A DNA stretch of 64,000 bases from Helcobacillus massiliensis (GTDB lineage Bacteria; Actinomycetota; Actinomycetes; Actinomycetales; Dermabacteraceae). Of this stretch, positions 2,327 to 29,983 are shown piece by piece; position 1 is the stretch's first letter, and each line of letters begins with the position of its first letter. A program made the translations under genes and the position numbers. A model generated the notes under the pieces. It did not search any database. It worked only from the letters and a program-made list of their open reading frames with translations, and was not told where the DNA came from. The DNA lies in NCBI RefSeq assembly GCF_014191425.1, contig NZ_JACHWP010000001.1, forward strand, positions 1,054,001 through 1,118,000, read 5' to 3'.

Positions 2327-5287
<2,961 letters not shown>

Positions 5288-10109: not shown

Positions 10110-11210
10110 TCAGTAGGCCATGCCCATGAAGTCCCGCACCTGATCCAGCGTGCGAACCGCCTGATCACGCGCCTTTTCATTACCGGCGCGCAGCACCTCG
10201 AGGAGGTAGTCGGGGCTCTGCTCGAGCTCTTCGCGGCGTGCCCGCAGCGGCGCCAGATGTTCGTTGAGAGCTTCGGCACACATGACCTTCAGCGTGCCGG
10301 CCCCCTTGTCGCCGATCTCGTCAGCGATCTCCTGGGGACTGCGACCGGTGCACTCGCTGGTGATGGTCAGCAGGTTCGCCACCTCGGGGCGGGCGTCGGG
10401 GTCGTAGGTGATGGTGCGGTCCGAGTCGGTCTTGGCGCGCTTGATCTGCTTCTCGGTCTCCTTGGCGGTCATCGAGAGCATGACGGTGTTGCCGCGGGAC
10501 TTCGACATCTTGTCGCCGTCGAGGCCGAGGATGATCGGCGCCTTGGAGAGCAGCGCGTCCGGTTCGGTGAAGAACTTCTCGCCGCCGGCGAAGCGCTCGT
10601 TGAAGCGACGGGCGATGACCCGGGTCTGTTCGATGTGGGGCAGCTGATCCTTGCCCACGGGTACGAGGTTGCCGTGGCAGAAGAGGATGTCGGCGGCCTG
10701 ATGGACCGGATAGGTGAGCAGCAGTCCGCCCATATGGCTCTTGCCGGCAGCGGCGAGCTCGGACTTCACGGTGGGGTTGCGCTCGAGCTCCGGCTGGGTG
10801 ACCAGGGCGAGGAACGGCAGCACGAGCTGGTTGAGCTCGGGGATCGCGGAGTGGGCGAAGATCGTGGACTTCTCGGGGTCGATGCCGGCTGCGAGGTAGT
10901 CGGTCAGCAGCTGGGTGACGCTGCCGCGGATGTCGCCGACGAGGTCGCGATCGGTGATGACCTGCAGGTCCGCCACCAGGATCCAGGACTCCACACCGGC
11001 GTTCTGGAGCCGGACGCGGTTGCGCAGCGTGCCGAAGTAGTGCCCGATGTGCAGAGCACCGGTGGGGCGGTCACCGGTCAGCATGCGGAAGACCGACGGG
11101 TCCTTCTCCAGCTGCTGCTCGATCTGCTCATTGCGGCGCAGCGCGGCGGCGTAGGTGCCGCTGGGGATCTCGGCGATGGTCGGGGACGTAGAAGCGGTGT
11201 TCGTGTTCAC
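10110..11210 (-). CDS. trpS: Tryptophanyl-tRNA synthetase
   Basis: A 366-residue class Ic aminoacyl-tRNA synthetase charging tRNA-Trp. The ATP-binding LHIGHYFG (HIGH) and DKMSKSRGN (KMSKS) signatures are intact, and GDRPTGALHIGH is the usual TrpRS opening. A GTG start at 11210 is chosen: TACGGT lies six bases upstream in the leaderless pattern, and the frame beyond it is low-complexity. No T-box or leader peptide is visible, consistent with a leaderless mRNA. It stands alone between the LacI-type regulator and cysK. Confidence 0.96.
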   Translation of the reverse strand: MNTNTASTSPTIAEIPSGTYAAALRRNEQIEQQLEKDPSVFRMLTGDRPTGALHIGHYFGTLRNRVRLQNAGVESWILVADLQVITDRDLVGDIRGSVTQLLTDYLAAGIDPEKSTIFAHSAIPELNQLVLPFLALVTQPELERNPTVKSELAAAGKSHMGGLLLTYPVHQAADILFCHGNLVPVGKDQLPHIEQTRVIARRFNERFAGGEKFFTEPDALLSKAPIILGLDGDKMSKSRGNTVMLSMTAKETEKQIKRAKTDSDRTITYDPDARPEVANLLTITSECTGRSPQEIADEIGDKGAGTLKVMCAEALNEHLAPLRARREELEQSPDYLLEVLRAGNEKARDQAVRTLDQVRDFMGMAY

Positions 11211-11216
11211 CCCTCT

Positions 11217-11222
11217 ACCGTA
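11217..11222 (-). promoter_or_regulatory. -10 hexamer for probably leaderless trpS mRNA
   Basis: TACGGT on the minus strand, six bases before the GTG start of trpS. Confidence 0.5.
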
Positions 11223-11296
11223 CCGAATGCGCGCGCCGGATCCGCCGCCCGCTCCCCCGCAGCGAGGCTGGCGGCGCACCGCTGAAGGATCGGCCG

Positions 11297-12292
11297 TCAG
11301 CGGGGCGCAGCGGTGGAGGCGCGGACCACGAGTTCGGGGCGGGCGGCGAAGGCGGAGGAAGGGGCCCGACGGGTGCGCCCCTCAGAGGCGAGGACGTGCC
11401 GCAGCGCAGTGCGGGCCATCAGCGCGACCGGCTGGCGGATCGTCGTGATCGCCGGCGAGTGGGTGCGGGCGGTGGGGATGTCGTCGTAGCCGACGACTGA
11501 GAGGTCCCGCGGGACGCTGAGGCCGCGGTCGGCGGCGGCGGCGACGGCACCGACGGCCATGACGTCCGAGCCGCAGATGATGGCCGTGCAGTCCTTGTCC
11601 AGCAGTTCGCTCGCGGACTGGTAGCCGCCGGCGTAGGAGAAGTCGGTGTAGGAGATGGGGCTGCGGCCGGAGCAGTCGGCCGTCTGCGCGCTGAAGGCGG
11701 CGGTCTTGCGGCGCACCGGCCAGGTGTGCTCATCGCCGACGGCGAGGCCGATGCGCTCATGGCCGAGCTCGCGCAGGTGGGTGAGCGCGAGGCTGATCGC
11801 GAATTCGTCATCCGCGGTGATGAAGGCGGCCTGCAGGTCCGGCAGTTCGCCGTTGACGAGGCTGAACGCGACGCCGCGCTCCATCGCCGCCCGGTAGTGG
11901 TCGTGGCTGTGCGCGGAGTCGGCATGCAGACCCGAGACCACGATGATGCCGCGGGAGCCGGCGCGCACGAGGCGATCGAAGATCCGCTCCTCGTCCTCTG
12001 GGCTGCGGGCACCGGCGCCGATGAGGACGTCTGCGTCGGCGCGGGCGGCTTCCTGCTCGACTGCGTCGGCGAACATCGGGAAGATCGGATTGTCCAGCAC
12101 GGGCAGCACCACGCCGATGAGCGGACGGGAGTCCTGCAGGGCCGCATCGCTGTATCGGCCGAGCTCGCGGGCGATCTGCAGCACCTTCTCGCGCGTGGCC
12201 GAGTTGACGCCGGGCTTTCCTGCAAGAACACGGGACACGGTTGCTTCACTGACGTGCGCTTGCGCTGCGATGTCGATCAGTCGCGCTTTCAT
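11297..12292 (-). CDS. LacI-family transcriptional regulator, probable maltodextrin-locus repressor
   Basis: A 331-residue LacI/GalR regulator. The N-terminal helix-turn-helix (about residues 4-25: DIAAQAHVSEATVSRVLAG) is followed by the hinge and a periplasmic-binding-protein-like sensor domain ending with the typical SVVGYDDIPTARTHSPAITTIRQP. It is divergent from the sugar-binding lipoprotein gene, with 274 bases between, and a TGCAA-N5-TTGCA inverted repeat lies in that gap. It therefore probably represses the transport and GH13 genes until a maltodextrin-derived inducer binds. The ATG at 12292 is chosen because the HTH begins directly after it; 91 upstream codons in frame are not conserved. 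Confidence 0.9.
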   Translation of the reverse strand: MKARLIDIAAQAHVSEATVSRVLAGKPGVNSATREKVLQIARELGRYSDAALQDSRPLIGVVLPVLDNPIFPMFADAVEQEAARADADVLIGAGARSPEDEERIFDRLVRAGSRGIIVVSGLHADSAHSHDHYRAAMERGVAFSLVNGELPDLQAAFITADDEFAISLALTHLRELGHERIGLAVGDEHTWPVRRKTAAFSAQTADCSGRSPISYTDFSYAGGYQSASELLDKDCTAIICGSDVMAVGAVAAAADRGLSVPRDLSVVGYDDIPTARTHSPAITTIRQPVALMARTALRHVLASEGRTRRAPSSAFAARPELVVRASTAAPR

Positions 12293-18444: not shown

Positions 18445-20049
18445 ATGTCGAACAAATGGTGGCGCAGCGCCGTGGTGTACCAGGTGTACCCGCGGTCGTT
18501 CGCCGACGGCAACGGCGACGGCATGGGCGACCTGCCCGGCATCACCGCGCGTCTGGAGCACATCCGGGACCTGGGCGCGGACGCGATCTGGCTGTCCCCG
18601 TTCTACACCTCGCCGCAGCACGACGCCGGCTATGACGTCGCGGACTTCACCGACGTCGACCCCCGCTTCGGCACCCTCGAGGACGCCGATGCCCTGATCG
18701 CCCGGGCCCATGAGCTCGGCATCCGGGTGATCGTGGACATCGTCCCCAACCACTCGTCCTCCGAGCACCCCCTGTTCAGGGCCGCGCTGGACGCGGAGCC
18801 CGGCTCCCCGGAGCGCGAGATGTACATCTTCCGCGACGGCAGGGGCGAGCATGGCGAGGAGCCGCCGAACAACTGGCAGTCGATCTTCCACGGCAGCGCC
18901 TGGACCCGCGAGGAGAAGCACGGCCAGTGGTACCTGCACCTGTTCGACACCTCCCAGCCGGACTTCAACTGGACCAACCGCGCCGTGCGCGACATGTTCG
19001 AAGGCGTTCTGCGGTTCTGGCTGGACCGCGGTGTGGACGGCTTCCGCGTGGACGTCGCCCACGGCATGATCAAGCCGGACGGCCTGCCGGATGAGTCCGA
19101 GGAGCACCGTCAGCTCATGGCCGGCGACCCCGACGTGGTCCCCGTCTACTTCGACCAGGACGGGGTCCACGAGATCTACCGCGAGTGGCGCCGTGTGCTC
19201 GACGAGTACGAGGGCGACCGCATGATGGTGGCGGAGGCGTGGGTGCCGAAGAACCGTCAGCACCTGTACATCAGGCCCGACGAGATGCACCAGATCTTCA
19301 ACTTCGGCTTCCTCGGCGCTGGCTGGAGCGTGGACACCATCACCGACGCCATCATGACGCCGCTGACCTTCGCGAAGGAGGTCGGCTCCCCCAGCACCTG
19401 GGTGCTGTCCAACCATGACGTGATCCGTCACGCCACCCGGTACGGCTTCGACCACGGCTACCGCTTCGGTGAGGGTCTGTCCCGCGAGGAGAAGCCGGAC
19501 CTGGAGCTGGGTCTGCGTCGCGCCCGCGGCGCCACCGCCCTTATGCTGGCTCTGCCCGGCTCCGCCTACCTGTACCAGGGCGAGGAGATGGGGCTGCCGG
19601 AGGTCGCGGAGATCCCCGACGAGCTGCGCGAGGACCCTGCGCACAAGCGGGCCGGCGTGCCGGGCCGCGACGGCTGCCGTGTGCCGCTGGCGTGGGAGAA
19701 GGACTCCCCCGCCTACGGCTTCTCCTCGACGGGGAAGGCGTGGCTGCCGCAGCCGGACGTCTACGGTGAGCGCGCCGCGGATCAGCAGGACGGCGTGGCC
19801 GGCTCCACCCTGGAGTTCTACCGCGCCGCGATCGCGCAGCGCCGCGCCCTGGGTCTGGCGACCGGTGACCTGGTGATGAACGAGAGCCCGCATGAGGGCG
19901 TGCTCTCGCTCACCAACGCCGGGGTCACGGTCCTGGTGAACACCACGGATCAGGACCATGACCTGCCGGCGGGCGCTGAGGTGCTGCTCGCCTCCCACCC
20001 GGACGCGCAGGAGCGTCTGGCGGCGAACAGCACCGTCTGGTTGCGCTGA
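18445..20049 (+). CDS. GH13 alpha-glucosidase / oligo-1,6-glucosidase
   Basis: A 534-residue GH13 enzyme of the oligo-1,6-glucosidase subfamily. The opening WWRSAVVYQVYPRSFADGNGDGMGDLPGI is diagnostic. Catalytic residues are D203 (DGFRVDVAHG), E264 (MVAEAW) and D325 (SNHD). It is cytoplasmic and releases glucose from short malto- or isomalto-oligosaccharides, completing the pathway begun by the preceding enzyme. GAAGGAGG gives a strong ribosome-binding site before ATG 18445. It closes the maltodextrin operon. Confidence 0.94.
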   Translation: MSNKWWRSAVVYQVYPRSFADGNGDGMGDLPGITARLEHIRDLGADAIWLSPFYTSPQHDAGYDVADFTDVDPRFGTLEDADALIARAHELGIRVIVDIVPNHSSSEHPLFRAALDAEPGSPEREMYIFRDGRGEHGEEPPNNWQSIFHGSAWTREEKHGQWYLHLFDTSQPDFNWTNRAVRDMFEGVLRFWLDRGVDGFRVDVAHGMIKPDGLPDESEEHRQLMAGDPDVVPVYFDQDGVHEIYREWRRVLDEYEGDRMMVAEAWVPKNRQHLYIRPDEMHQIFNFGFLGAGWSVDTITDAIMTPLTFAKEVGSPSTWVLSNHDVIRHATRYGFDHGYRFGEGLSREEKPDLELGLRRARGATALMLALPGSAYLYQGEEMGLPEVAEIPDELREDPAHKRAGVPGRDGCRVPLAWEKDSPAYGFSSTGKAWLPQPDVYGERAADQQDGVAGSTLEFYRAAIAQRRALGLATGDLVMNESPHEGVLSLTNAGVTVLVNTTDQDHDLPAGAEVLLASHPDAQERLAANSTVWLR

Positions 20050-20060
20050 CCACCGCTTGG

Positions 20061-20066
20061 TAGTCT
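20061..20066 (+). promoter_or_regulatory. -10 hexamer for probably leaderless ATP-grasp mRNA
   Basis: TAGTCT seven bases before ATG 20074, just after the alpha-glucosidase stop. It separates the maltodextrin operon from the following envelope cluster. Confidence 0.5.
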
Positions 20067-20073
20067 GCAGTTC

Positions 20074-21336
20074 ATGCGCTCTCACACACCGGCGGAGCCG
20101 CGTGATGACTTCGATGTGGTCATCCTCGGCGCGGGCCTGAACTCCCTGAACCTTGCGATCGCCTTCCACGCCCAGTACGGGATGCGCTCCACCTTCGTGA
20201 TGCGCTCCTCGGTGGCCATGAACGAGAAGACGGTCACAGCGGATGCGGTGACGCTGCCGTTGGGGACCTCCGATGAGGAGTTCGCTGAGGCGCTCGTCGA
20301 GCTGGCCCGCAGGCGTCCTGCGGGCCGGCCGGCCCTGCTGCTGACCAACGATGACACGCTGATCGCGTTCATCGACCGCTTCCGGGACCAGCTGGAGCCG
20401 CACTACCTGCTTACGCAGATCCCGCGGAGCCTGCTCGATCAGCTGGCGGACAAGGCAGAGTTCGCGGAGATCTGCGCGAGGCTGGACATTCCCACCCCGC
20501 CGACTGTGACCGTGGACTTCTCCCGCGCCGGTCAGGAGGGGTGGAACGGGCACGAGGAGCTGCCGTGGCAGTTCCCCGTGGTGGCGAAGCCCGCCCGCAC
20601 CAGCGACTACGCCCATCTCACCTTCCCCGGGAAGCGCAAGGTGTTCATGCTGGAGTCCGAGCGGGAGCGCCGCGATCTCGTCGAGTCGCTGACGAACGCC
20701 GGATTCCGCGGCCGGTTCCTGTTCCAGGAGCTGATCGAGGGCGACGACACTACGCTGCGGTCGATCACGGCCTACCGGTCCACACGCGGCCGCGTCACGC
20801 TGCTGTGCGCCGCGCAGGTGCTGTTGGGGGAGCACACGCCGGAGGCGCTGGGCCGTCCTGCGGCGATGATCACCGGGTCGTTCCCGGAGCTGACGGCGCA
20901 GGCGGAGCGGTTCCTGGACCATGTGGACTACGTCGGGTTCGCGAACTTCGATCTGAAGGTGGATCCGCGCACCGGCGAGGCGTACTTCCTGGAGATCAAC
21001 CCGCGCATCGGCCGCAACAACTACTACGTGACCGGAGCGGGCGAGCCCGTGTCGCGCCACATCGTGGCGGACCGCATCGACGGGGTCGACCTCGATCAGG
21101 TCGTCGTTGACCGCGAGGTGCTCTATTCGATCGTGCCGCGCCTGTGGGTGCGGCGCTACATCCGTGACCGCCACCTGCGGCGCCGCTTCGACCGCATTGC
21201 GCGGCGCGCTCTGCGCAACCCGTTCCGCTACGGCCCGGAGCGCCTGTGGATCAAGGCGTACTCAGTGGTGTCCGGGGCGAACTTCGTGCGCAAGTACCTG
21301 CGCGTGTATCCGCGGCCGACGGATTCCGGTTTCTGA
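20074..21336 (+). CDS. ATP-grasp carboxylate-amine ligase, paralogue 1
   Basis: A 420-residue ATP-grasp protein. An N-terminal nucleotide-fold domain (DVVILGAGLNSLNLAIAFHA) precedes the ATP-grasp core: PVVAKPAR, FPGKRKVF, FQELIEGDDTT, then FANFDLKVD and FLEINPRIGRNN for metal and ATP. The fold joins a carboxylate to an amine through an acyl phosphate. It resembles the predicted carboligases that include the D-aspartate ligase of Gram-positive peptidoglycan cross-bridges; that link is from memory of the family, not a search. A close paralogue follows 54 bases downstream. Possible roles are adding an amino acid to lipid II or a cross-bridge, or making a small amide. No signal peptide or membrane segment. 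Confidence 0.8.
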   Translation: MRSHTPAEPRDDFDVVILGAGLNSLNLAIAFHAQYGMRSTFVMRSSVAMNEKTVTADAVTLPLGTSDEEFAEALVELARRRPAGRPALLLTNDDTLIAFIDRFRDQLEPHYLLTQIPRSLLDQLADKAEFAEICARLDIPTPPTVTVDFSRAGQEGWNGHEELPWQFPVVAKPARTSDYAHLTFPGKRKVFMLESERERRDLVESLTNAGFRGRFLFQELIEGDDTTLRSITAYRSTRGRVTLLCAAQVLLGEHTPEALGRPAAMITGSFPELTAQAERFLDHVDYVGFANFDLKVDPRTGEAYFLEINPRIGRNNYYVTGAGEPVSRHIVADRIDGVDLDQVVVDREVLYSIVPRLWVRRYIRDRHLRRRFDRIARRALRNPFRYGPERLWIKAYSVVSGANFVRKYLRVYPRPTDSGF

Positions 21337-21390
21337 TCCCGCGCCGCCCTGTGCCACGCTTCTTCTCTCCGATCGAAAGCTTCGTCTGCC

Positions 21391-22692
21391 ATGACCCGTT
21401 CCTCCGCCCTTCCGGCTTCGCCTTCGCCGGCTGACCACTCCGACACCGAGCATGTGCAGCTGGTGCTGCTGGGCGGTGACATCGGCGTCTACGCGATCGC
21501 GCGCGCGTTCCACGAAGCCTTCGGCACTCACGCCACGGTGATCACACGCAGCGTGGCGGGACCCGTCGCGGACTCCTCGATCCTGCAGGCCCGCGGTCTG
21601 GGTGCCGAGGCCGGAGAGGCGGAGCTGCTCGAAGCCGCTCTGGAGACCGGGCGCCTGGCCACCGCGCAGCGGGCGCGGACGGGAGGTCCGAAGCCGTTCC
21701 TGCTGGCGAACGCGGACTGGCTGATTGCGCTGATCGTCCGCAACCGGGAAGCGCTGAGTGAGCACTATCTGCTGCCGGTGCTGCCGGAGGACCTGCTGGA
21801 GCAGGTGGCGGACAAGGCTGAGTTCGCGAGGCTGTGCGCCGAGGTGGAGATGACCACTCCGACTACGGTGATCGTGGACTTCACCGACGGTGCCCTGCCG
21901 GCGGTGCCGGAAGTGGAGCATCTGGGCTGGCCGCTGGTGGCCAAGCCGTCCCGCTCCTCGGCGTACGCGCATGTGAAGTTCCCCGGGAAGCGGAAGGTGT
22001 TCGAGATCGCTGACCGCGCGCAGCTGGAGGATCTGGTCCGTCGCCTGCATGAGGCGGGGTTCCGGGACCGCTTCGTGCTGCAGGAGATGATCCCGGGCGA
22101 TGACACGGCGATGCGGTCGGTGACGGCGTATGTGGATCAGCGCGGGGCGGTCACGCTGATGGGCGGAGCGCATGTGCTGCTGGAGGAGCACACGCCGGGC
22201 GCCCTGGGGAATCCGGCGGCGATGATCACGCAGGACATGCCCGAGCTGTTCGCTCAGGCGGAGCGGTTCCTGACGCATGTGGGCTACCGCGGGTACGCGA
22301 ACTTCGATGTGAAGGTGGATCCGCGCGATGGGCAGCCGAAGTTCTTCGAGGTGAACCCGCGGGTGGGCCGCAACAACGTCTACATGACGGCGGCGGGCGC
22401 CAATATTGCGCTGCCGGCTGTGGCGGACCATCTGCAGCAGCGCAGCATCGAGCAGATCCGCCCCACCCGGGAGATCCTCTACTCGATCATCCCGAGAACC
22501 CTGCTGTGGCGCTACGTCACGGACCCGTCTCTGCGGTCACGCGCGAAGGCGATCGCGAAGCGTGCCACGGTCCACCCGCTGCTGTACCGTCCCGAGGGCC
22601 TGAAGCGCCGCGCCTACGTCGCGGCGGCGATGGCGAACCAGGTGAAGAAGTTCGCCCAGCACTACCGGTCGCCGTCGGCCGACGGCTTCTGA
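21391..22692 (+). CDS. ATP-grasp carboxylate-amine ligase, paralogue 2
   Basis: A 433-residue paralogue of the preceding protein. Shared blocks include ADKAEFA, the FPGKRKVF loop, QEMIPGDDTAMRSVTAY, EHTPGALGNPAAMIT, ANFDVKVDPRDG and FEVNPRVGRNNVYMT, and even the C-terminal DGF. The N-terminal substrate-side domain differs much more (VLLGGDIGVYAIARAFHEAFG), which suggests related chemistry on a different substrate. ATG 21391 lies 54 bases after the first gene, so co-transcription is likely. Tandem duplication and divergence is the simplest origin. Two successive additions in a peptidoglycan bridge would explain a pair, but this is inference. Confidence 0.8.
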   Translation: MTRSSALPASPSPADHSDTEHVQLVLLGGDIGVYAIARAFHEAFGTHATVITRSVAGPVADSSILQARGLGAEAGEAELLEAALETGRLATAQRARTGGPKPFLLANADWLIALIVRNREALSEHYLLPVLPEDLLEQVADKAEFARLCAEVEMTTPTTVIVDFTDGALPAVPEVEHLGWPLVAKPSRSSAYAHVKFPGKRKVFEIADRAQLEDLVRRLHEAGFRDRFVLQEMIPGDDTAMRSVTAYVDQRGAVTLMGGAHVLLEEHTPGALGNPAAMITQDMPELFAQAERFLTHVGYRGYANFDVKVDPRDGQPKFFEVNPRVGRNNVYMTAAGANIALPAVADHLQQRSIEQIRPTREILYSIIPRTLLWRYVTDPSLRSRAKAIAKRATVHPLLYRPEGLKRRAYVAAAMANQVKKFAQHYRSPSADGF

Positions 22693-22770: not shown

Positions 22771-22869
22771 ATGGAACCGAGCCGTGCTGCCGCCGTCCTC
22801 AAGTCGGATCAGCTCGCGACTTTCCGACGATGGTCGCGGCCGCGCGGATCAGTGACGATGGGGGCATGA
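22771..22869 (+). CDS. Small upstream ORF (32 residues), possibly coupled to the glycosyltransferase
   Basis: The frame opens at ATG 22771 directly behind a TAGCCT hexamer and ends at TGA 22867-22869, which overlaps the glycosyltransferase ATG 22866 as ATGA. The peptide (MEPSRAAAVLKSDQLATFRR and 12 more residues) has no recognisable motif. The position suggests that ribosomes translating this leader reinitiate on the next gene. It could instead be chance: the length is short and coding cannot be shown from one genome. Confidence 0.4.
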   Translation: MEPSRAAAVLKSDQLATFRRWSRPRGSVTMGA

Positions 22870-24119
22870 GGATGGAACGACCGCTGAAGGTGCTGATCAC
22901 CACCGACTGGTACGAGCCCGTGGTGAACGGAGTGGTGGCCAGTGTGCTCACCCTGAAGAAGCAGCTGGAGCTGCTGGGCTGCGATGTCCGCGTCCTCACG
23001 CTGTCCGGGTCCGTCCGCTCCACCATCGAGAACGGGGTGTACCGTCTCGGGTCCGTGTCCGCGTCCCTGTTCTACGACCATGCACGCCTGGCGGTCCGCT
23101 CGAACCGCAGGATTCGCCGCGAGCTCGAGCAGTGGCGTCCCGATGTCATCCATTCCCAGTGCGAGTTCTCCACGCACCTGTGGGCGAAGCGCCTGGCGAA
23201 GAGCCTCCGCATCCCCGTGGTGCACACCTACCACACGATCTACGAGGACTACACGCACTACTATTCGCCCTCGCGCACCATGGGCAAGAAGATGGTGTCC
23301 TCCTTCAGCCGCAAGGTGTGCACGGCGATGGACGCCGTCATCGTCCCGACCGGCAAGGTCGCCGATCTGCTGCAGGGCTACGGCATCACCACCCCGATCT
23401 CCGTGATCCCCACGGGCCTGGACCTCACGCACTTCCGTCCCGCCGCCACGATTGCGGAGCGGGAGCAGAGCGTGCGCCTGCGCGCTGAGCTCGGCGTCCC
23501 CGCCCACCACCGCGTCCTCATCTCCGTGTGCCGCCTGGCGAAGGAGAAGAACGTGGACGAGGTCATCGCGTCCTTCGCCGCGTCCGGTGCAGAGAACACC
23601 ACTCTCGTGCTCGTGGGCGATGGCCCGTACCGGCCGGAGCTCGAACGCCTTGTGGAGCGCCTGGATGTGCAGGAGTCGGTGCGATTCGCCGGCTTCGTGG
23701 CCCCGTCGGCCGTCCCCGAGTACTACCGGATGGCGGACGTCTTCGTCTCCGCCTCCCTCAGTGAGACGCAGGGGCTCACCTACATCGAGGCGCAGGCGTG
23801 CGGGCTGCCGCTGCTGTGCCGCGAGGATCCATCCCTGGAGCAGGTCGTCGTCCCCGGCCGGACAGGGTGGACGTTCACCTCGGCCGACGGGTTCCGCCGC
23901 GGGCTCGATGCCATCACCTCCAGCTCCGCCGTCATGCGGGCGATGGGTGATGAGGGCGCGTCCCATGCGGCTGCCGTGTTCAGTGCCCGGGCGTTCGGCC
24001 TCGCCGTGCTCGGCGTGTACCGCCGGGTGCTGGGCCTGCCGTCGGTGGAGCAGATCGCCGAGGAGATGCTTCTCACCGATCTCATGACCGGGCGCGAGCT
24101 CGAGCTGCAGGCCGCCTGA
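22866..24119 (+). CDS. GT4-family glycosyltransferase (diacylglycerol glucosyltransferase-like)
   Basis: A 417-residue retaining glycosyltransferase of the GT-B fold. The N-terminal acceptor domain starts KVLITTDWYEPVVNGVVASV and carries HTYHTIYEDYTHYYSP, a segment typical of enzymes that glucosylate diacylglycerol or phosphatidylinositol-like lipids. The C-terminal donor domain has VSASLSETQGLTYIEAQACGLPLL with the E-x7-E type motif of GT4. ATG 22866 is chosen because it overlaps the stop of a small upstream ORF (ATGA); a second ATG at 22872 is also possible. It is followed one base after its stop by the VTT membrane protein and then another GT4 gene, so glycolipid or lipoteichoic-type anchor synthesis is likely. 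Confidence 0.85.
   Translation: MRMERPLKVLITTDWYEPVVNGVVASVLTLKKQLELLGCDVRVLTLSGSVRSTIENGVYRLGSVSASLFYDHARLAVRSNRRIRRELEQWRPDVIHSQCEFSTHLWAKRLAKSLRIPVVHTYHTIYEDYTHYYSPSRTMGKKMVSSFSRKVCTAMDAVIVPTGKVADLLQGYGITTPISVIPTGLDLTHFRPAATIAEREQSVRLRAELGVPAHHRVLISVCRLAKEKNVDEVIASFAASGAENTTLVLVGDGPYRPELERLVERLDVQESVRFAGFVAPSAVPEYYRMADVFVSASLSETQGLTYIEAQACGLPLLCREDPSLEQVVVPGRTGWTFTSADGFRRGLDAITSSSAVMRAMGDEGASHAAAVFSARAFGLAVLGVYRRVLGLPSVEQIAEEMLLTDLMTGRELELQAA

Positions 24120-28114: not shown

Positions 28115-28118
<4 letters not shown>
27453..28118 (-). CDS. grpE: Nucleotide exchange factor GrpE
   Basis: A 221-residue GrpE that releases ADP from DnaK. A disordered acidic N-terminus of about 75 residues is followed by a long coiled-coil ([31 protein letters not shown]) and the head domain with [20 protein letters not shown] and [17 protein letters not shown]. 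The C-terminal [19 protein letters not shown] is the family signature. Its ATG overlaps the dnaK stop by four bases (ATGA). Confidence 0.96.

Positions 28119-29983
<1,865 letters not shown>

What the first reader, a model, noticed from the sequence alone, without database searches (positions are those of the whole stretch)
20074..22692. Tandem paralogous ATP-grasp ligases, candidate peptidoglycan cross-bridge enzymes
The two proteins share a complete ATP-grasp core but differ in the N-terminal domain, as expected if they act on different substrates. The family resembles the predicted carboligases that include D-aspartate ligase of Gram-positive cross-bridges. Some Micrococcales relatives have interpeptide bridges containing D-Asp and/or D-Glu, which would need two ligases. 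The genes are followed by lipid-acting glycosyltransferases, giving a consistent envelope context. The role is inference.
Basis: inference. Interest (0 to 1): 0.65.

Follow-up and report, generated by a model that had tools for sequence, protein, structure and literature searches.

The report
Two paired cell-wall cross-bridge ligases
Two neighbouring bacterial genes belong to the enzyme family that attaches D-aspartate to the cell-wall mesh, but they sit in a branch that appears to attach glutamate instead, so they are good candidates for the unidentified enzymes that build glutamate bridges in the walls of many soil and skin actinobacteria.

Summary
Window 20074-21336 (P1) and 21391-22692 (P2) are tandem paralogues, 46% identical, with full ATP-grasp domains. 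They are full-length relatives of the D-aspartate ligase (AslA/Aslfm) family.

Every one of 47 Dermabacteraceae genomes carries the family, nearly always as two copies, in one of two arrangements. One is P1+P2 (as here), with no aspartate-type racemase. The other is P1' plus P3 with an aspartate racemase beside P3. At the conserved chromosomal address the P2 slot is exchanged for P3+racemase. Across the order the family splits into a racemase-linked clade and a clade (P1, P2) that never stands alone beside a racemase.

Genomes named by exact published length fit published bridges. D-Asp walls have the racemase-linked type (Cellulomonas flavigena, Xylanimonas, Brachybacterium avium). Glu walls have the P1/P2 type (Sanguibacter, Jonesia, Kytococcus, B. 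faecium). A triglycine species, Intrasporangium, has none.

Best reading: P1 and P2 add glutamate, probably D-Glu, to meso-DAP and build a Glu-Glu bridge. Against a simple rule: Kytococcus has Glu2 with one ligase, Xylanimonas has both types but only D-Asp reported, and B. nesterenkovii has Asp reported without a racemase. No biochemistry exists; donor, chirality and order are inferred.

The parts
20074..21336 (+). P1: ATP-grasp ligase, clade 'E' (no racemase), 420 aa; the copy present in both arrangements of Dermabacteraceae; predicted glutamate ligase
21391..22692 (+). P2: ATP-grasp ligase, clade 'E', 433 aa; found only in genomes that lack P3 + aspartate-type racemase; predicted second glutamate ligase
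18445..20049 (+). alpha-amylase family protein: conserved upstream border of the ligase locus (same address in most Dermabacteraceae); not thought to be part of the function
22830..24119 (+). GT4 glycosyltransferase resembling monoglucosyl-diacylglycerol synthase: conserved downstream border of the locus; not thought to be part of the function

Best explanation
P1 and P2 are cytoplasmic ATP-grasp carboxylate-amine ligases of the AslA/Aslfm (D-aspartate ligase) family that make the interpeptide bridge of the A4-gamma peptidoglycan (meso-diaminopimelate plus acidic amino acids). ATP activates a side-chain carboxylate of an acidic amino acid as an acyl phosphate, and the free amino group of meso-DAP in the precursor, or of the residue just added, attacks it. 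In this genome both most likely use glutamate, probably D-Glu supplied by MurI, in two successive steps, giving a Glu-Glu bridge. P1 would add the residue common to both wall types of the family. P2 would occupy the step that other members fill with P3, a D-Asp ligase, and its aspartate racemase. Shown here: family, tandem pair, exchange of P2 for P3+racemase, racemase linkage of one clade only, agreement with published bridge composition, meso-DAP-type MurE, no FemAB. Inferred: donor residue and its chirality, side-chain activation, acceptor, order of steps.
For: (1) Homology: P2 matches lactobacillar ligases over 93% of its length, E 8e-38 to 7e-53. In Latilactobacillus curvatus the homologue follows an amino-acid racemase and aspS; in L. 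crispatus it follows asnB. AslA is the ATP-grasp D-Asp ligase, racD lies in its operon in L. lactis and AsnH amidates the D-Asp (PMC4155827). (2) Swap: P3+racemase or P2, never both, at one address between amylase and glycosyltransferase genes; the racemase passes the TIGR00035 asp_race cut-off. (3) Order level: racemase beside 40 of 47 loci with a clade-A ligase, 0 of 52 loci with clade E only; in later loci 7 of 7 against 0 of 16. (4) Named genomes by exact length: D-Asp or Asp walls C. flavigena, X. cellulosilytica and B. avium have clade A + racemase; Glu walls S. keddieii, J. denitrificans, K. sedentarius, B. faecium and B. vulturis have clade E only; I. calvum (Gly3 bridge) has no member. 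(5) Own genome: MurE with the DNPR motif, no FemAB, MurI as the only PF01177 gene, no RacD-type racemase. (6) Fold: PylC, which couples D-ornithine to the lysine side-chain amine, is among the best structural matches, Z 23-24.
Against: K. sedentarius (Glu2) has one ligase, so two residues do not require two enzymes. X. cellulosilytica carries a clade-E ligase as well as clade A + racemase, though only L-Lys-D-Asp is reported. B. nesterenkovii (P1+P2, no racemase) is tabulated with Asp in its wall. Beutenbergia (L-Lys<-L-Glu) has a clade-A relative without racemase, so donor chirality varies in the family. The named sample is small (one-sided Fisher p 0.033 for 10 species, not corrected for relatedness), and part of the composition data is thin-layer chromatography. 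PylC-like similarity is shared with PurK-type folds at nearly the same Z. The bridge of the window's own species is not known.
Confidence: 0.66

Rival explanations
1. Only one of the two enzymes builds the bridge, perhaps adding both residues in turn; the other puts an amino acid elsewhere on the precursor or on another envelope molecule.
For: Kytococcus has Glu2 with a single clade-E ligase; Xylanimonas and Isoptericola have tandem clade E + clade A + racemase, and only L-Lys-D-Asp is reported for Xylanimonas.
Against: In Dermabacteraceae nearly all genomes have two copies and the two arrangements differ mainly in the second copy, as expected if each copy serves one position.
Confidence: 0.2
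2. The donor is L-glutamate, or differs between P1 and P2, rather than D-glutamate for both.
For: Beutenbergia cavernae, with an L-Lys<-L-Glu bridge, carries a member of the same family, so L-Glu donors are possible; a glutamate donor of either chirality needs no extra racemase.
Against: Beutenbergia's enzyme falls in the other clade; clade-E species with a stated chirality have D-Glu (Sanguibacter, Jonesia).
Confidence: 0.14
3. The pair acts outside peptidoglycan, for example adding amino acids to glycolipids or wall glycopolymers made with the neighbouring glycosyltransferases.
For: The glycosyltransferase-VTT-glycosyltransferase block downstream is conserved at this address in most of the family.
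Against: In Dermabacter and Helcobacillus P1 sits elsewhere, without that block (loci L009, L011, L038); in other families the ligases have other neighbours but keep the racemase linkage; the family matches bridge chemistry, and I. calvum, with a Gly3 bridge, lacks it.
Confidence: 0.06

Closest known systems
D-aspartate ligase AslA (Lactococcus lactis) / Aslfm (Enterococcus faecium)
   Same: Same length and full-length homology to the lactobacillar family members; ATP-grasp; a sister clade in the same bacterial family is encoded beside an aspartate-type racemase, as racD is with aslA
   Different: No aspartate racemase in this genome; two paralogues in tandem; meso-DAP acceptor instead of L-Lys; the clade separates from racemase-linked members at 14 alignment columns; predicted donor glutamate. 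AslA of L. lactis itself was not compared directly
PylC (pyrrolysine biosynthesis)
   Same: Structural match Z 23-24 over about 290 residues; chemically analogous: couples a D-amino acid to the side-chain amine of lysine with ATP
   Different: 12-14% identity, small-molecule substrate, different pathway
FemABX / BppA aminoacyl-tRNA-dependent bridge transferases
   Same: Also add bridge residues to the position-3 amine
   Different: Unrelated fold and tRNA-dependent; FemAB (PF02388) is absent from this genome

Membership tests
AslA/Aslfm D-aspartate ligase family (homology) | Full-length sequence homology to lactobacillar carboxylate-amine ligases with D-Asp-pathway neighbours | tested here: met
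   P2 vs L. crispatus, L. curvatus, L. fermentum: 93% coverage, E 7e-53 to 8e-38; neighbours racemase/aspS and asnB
AslA/Aslfm D-aspartate ligase family (homology) | ATP-grasp fold | tested here: met
   AF2 models pLDDT 90.4 and 90.7; best PDB matches are ATP-grasp enzymes, Z up to 26
D-aspartate ligase in the functional sense | Aspartate racemase (racD) beside the ligase or in the genome | tested here: not met
   No RacD-type hit in G000; the only PF01177 gene is MurI
D-aspartate ligase in the functional sense | Belongs to the racemase-linked clade | tested here: not met
   P1 and P2 fall in the clade with 0 of 52 racemase-adjacent loci
D-aspartate ligase in the functional sense | Ligates D-Asp to the peptidoglycan precursor in vitro | not testable with these tools
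   needs purified enzyme and UDP-MurNAc-pentapeptide
A4-gamma bridge synthesis | meso-DAP-type MurE and no tRNA-dependent bridge transferase | tested here: met
   MurE passes TIGR01085 and carries DNPR; FemAB absent
A4-gamma bridge synthesis | Wall of this species contains an acidic amino-acid bridge | not testable with these tools
   species of the window not named; family reported as A4-gamma (PMC6090031)
PylC | Close sequence identity and a pyrrolysine pathway around the gene | tested here: not met
   12-14% identity in structural alignment; no pyrrolysine genes among the neighbours scanned

The most novel reading that the evidence does not exclude
Clade E is the long-missing glutamate-adding branch of bridge ligases (A4-type walls), and the locus is a natural chemotype switch: exchanging an aspartate racemase plus D-Asp ligase for a single glutamate ligase at one chromosomal address converts an Asp-containing bridge into a Glu-only bridge across Dermabacteraceae.
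Probability: 0.5. Interest if true: 0.66.

Novelty: new variant of a known kind. Interest (0 to 1): 0.52.

Why it matters
Peptidoglycan types with glutamate in the bridge have been used in actinobacterial taxonomy for decades, yet to my knowledge no enzyme adding bridge D-Glu has been identified; searches of the held papers found none. This gives named genes, a sequence signature and a ready comparison (B. faecium or B. vulturis against B. avium; Cellulomonas flavigena against Sanguibacter) that makes the question directly testable, and would let bridge chemistry be predicted from genomes.

Tried and rejected
Family profiles alone do not name the proteins: Pfam and NCBIfam give only weak ATP-grasp or carbamoyl-phosphate-synthase-like matches, the NCBIfam ones far below cut-off, and PDB sequence search likewise. 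I first thought Dermabacter and Helcobacillus had one ligase only; a whole-genome search showed a second, unlinked one. 'Copy number equals number of bridge residues' was tested and rejected by Kytococcus and Xylanimonas. Discriminating columns between the clades were found (14), but the Lactobacillus and Bifidobacteriaceae enzymes match neither clade cleanly, so they are suggestive only. The Cellulomonas fimi and C. gilvus genomes (clade E, no racemase; lengths) were not counted because no held paper gave their bridge. A promoter and terminator scan of the locus found nothing.

Full report
Observation. Two open frames of 420 and 433 aa lie at 20074-21336 and 21391-22692 on the + strand, 54 bp apart. 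They are the only members of their family in the genome, a 2.62 Mb Dermabacteraceae assembly, and align end to end, with identity 35% in the N-terminal part, 57% in the ATP-grasp core and 41% at the C-terminus. Both models are confident (pLDDT 90) and both match ATP-grasp enzymes over the whole chain, first 2pn1 and then PylC and PurK-type enzymes. PylC is chemically instructive because it couples D-ornithine to the side-chain amine of lysine, but its Z is tied with PurK enzymes, so it is an analogy and not a test.

Family. General profile libraries do not name the proteins. A translated search of plasmid records finds full-length relatives in Lactobacillus crispatus, Latilactobacillus curvatus and Limosilactobacillus fermentum. 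In L. curvatus the gene follows an amino-acid racemase and aspS; in L. crispatus it follows asnB. This is the context expected of the D-aspartate ligase: in Lactococcus lactis AslA is an ATP-grasp enzyme, racD is in the same operon, and AsnH amidates the D-Asp (PMC4155827). The review states that most lactobacilli have D-Asp bridges; these strains were not checked one by one. AslA of L. lactis itself was not compared.

Two arrangements in the family. All 47 Dermabacteraceae genomes examined carry the family, 42 of them with two matches; most exceptions are fragmented assemblies or split reading frames, and one genome (G053) has a single copy. A maximum-likelihood tree shows three clades: P1 (always present), P2 and P3. 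P2 genomes have no strong RacD-type racemase; P3 genomes have one, beside P3. The racemase passes the TIGR00035 asp_race cut-off; it also just passes a cysteate-racemase model. In most genomes the address is the same: maltose transport and amylase genes on one side, a glycosyltransferase, VTT protein and glycosyltransferase on the other. The content is either P1>P2> or P1'> <racemase <P3. Dermabacter and Helcobacillus keep P3+racemase at the address and P1 elsewhere.

Across the order. A profile search found the family in 119 of 248 genomes of the order, 194 of 200 of the Sanguibacter/Cellulomonas family and 84 of 188 of the Kytococcus/Intrasporangium family. The wider tree (quick method, several long branches) separates clade A (P3) from clade E (P1, P2). 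A racemase lies within 2.5 kb in 40 of 47 loci with a clade-A member and 0 of 52 with clade E only. Loci fetched afterwards and classified by best match gave 7 of 7 and 0 of 16. These counts include related genomes, so the Fisher values (8e-21, 4e-6) overstate independence.

Named genomes. With racemase-linked clade A: C. flavigena 4,123,179 (bridge D-Asp), X. cellulosilytica 3,742,776 + 88,604 (L-Lys-D-Asp; also a clade-E copy), and B. avium, whose three contigs sum to 3,568,502 (Asp and Glu). With clade E only: S. keddieii 4,253,413 (L-Lys-Ser-D-Glu), J. denitrificans 2,749,646 (L-Lys-L-Ser-D-Glu), K. sedentarius 2,785,024 (L-Lys-Glu2), B. faecium 3,614,992 (DAP, Ala, Glu) and B. vulturis 3,796,663 (no Asp). 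Beutenbergia cavernae 4,669,183 (L-Lys<-L-Glu) has a clade-A relative without racemase. Intrasporangium calvum 4,024,382, with a triglycine bridge, has no member. The exception is B. nesterenkovii: arrangement P1+P2, no aspartate racemase, yet Asp is tabulated. For the ten species with a ligase, one-sided Fisher p is 0.033, uncorrected for relatedness.

The window's genome. MurE carries the DNPR motif of meso-DAP enzymes (the motif's meaning is established knowledge), FemAB is absent, and the only Asp/Glu-racemase-family gene is MurI. Hence D-Asp has no evident source by the usual route, while D-Glu has one.

Mechanism and rivals. I infer that P1 and P2 each ligate glutamate, probably D-Glu, to the peptidoglycan precursor in two steps. 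Kytococcus (two Glu, one ligase) and Xylanimonas (both types, only D-Asp reported) show that copy number does not simply equal the number of residues, so one enzyme of the pair may do both steps or act elsewhere. Chirality is not settled, since Beutenbergia shows an L-Glu case in the family. A role outside peptidoglycan is unlikely because the glycosyltransferase neighbourhood is not kept where P1 has moved.

Novelty. This is a new variant of a known kind: a clade of the D-aspartate-ligase family predicted to use another donor, working as a pair. Searches of the held papers found no identified bridge glutamate ligase; most subscription papers are not in that library.

Noticed in passing
window 20050-20074: Only 24 bp separate the amylase stop codon from the P1 start; TAGTCT ends 8 bp before the ATG, which would fit a leaderless actinobacterial promoter (no sigma-70 consensus found).
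   Followed up: no
L041 (G053) 3742-5085: One Dermabacteraceae genome (genus g5) has a single, deeply branching clade-E ligase and no aspartate racemase: a possible one-residue bridge or a missing contig.
   Followed up: partly
L157, L158, L159, L111, L112, L194: Isoptericola variabilis, Xylanimonas cellulosilytica and relatives carry a tandem clade-E ligase + clade-A ligase + racemase; the role of the clade-E copy where only D-Asp is reported is unexplained.
   Followed up: partly
L073 (G037) 10307-11648: The P1' gene is split into two frames in a single-contig Brachybacterium assembly of 85% completeness: likely sequencing error or a broken gene.
   Followed up: no
window 28487-29980: Strong Pfam hit to PF10712 (NAD-specific glutamate dehydrogenase) on the + strand opposite a 622-aa frame (28115-29983, -); from general knowledge this Pfam family often marks antisense frames of GC-rich genes, so it is probably not a gene.
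   Followed up: no
L136, L137, L138 (G131, G144, G157): Small genomes of one family (f3) hold a very diverged relative forming its own long branch in the tree, without a racemase; substrate unknown.
   Followed up: no
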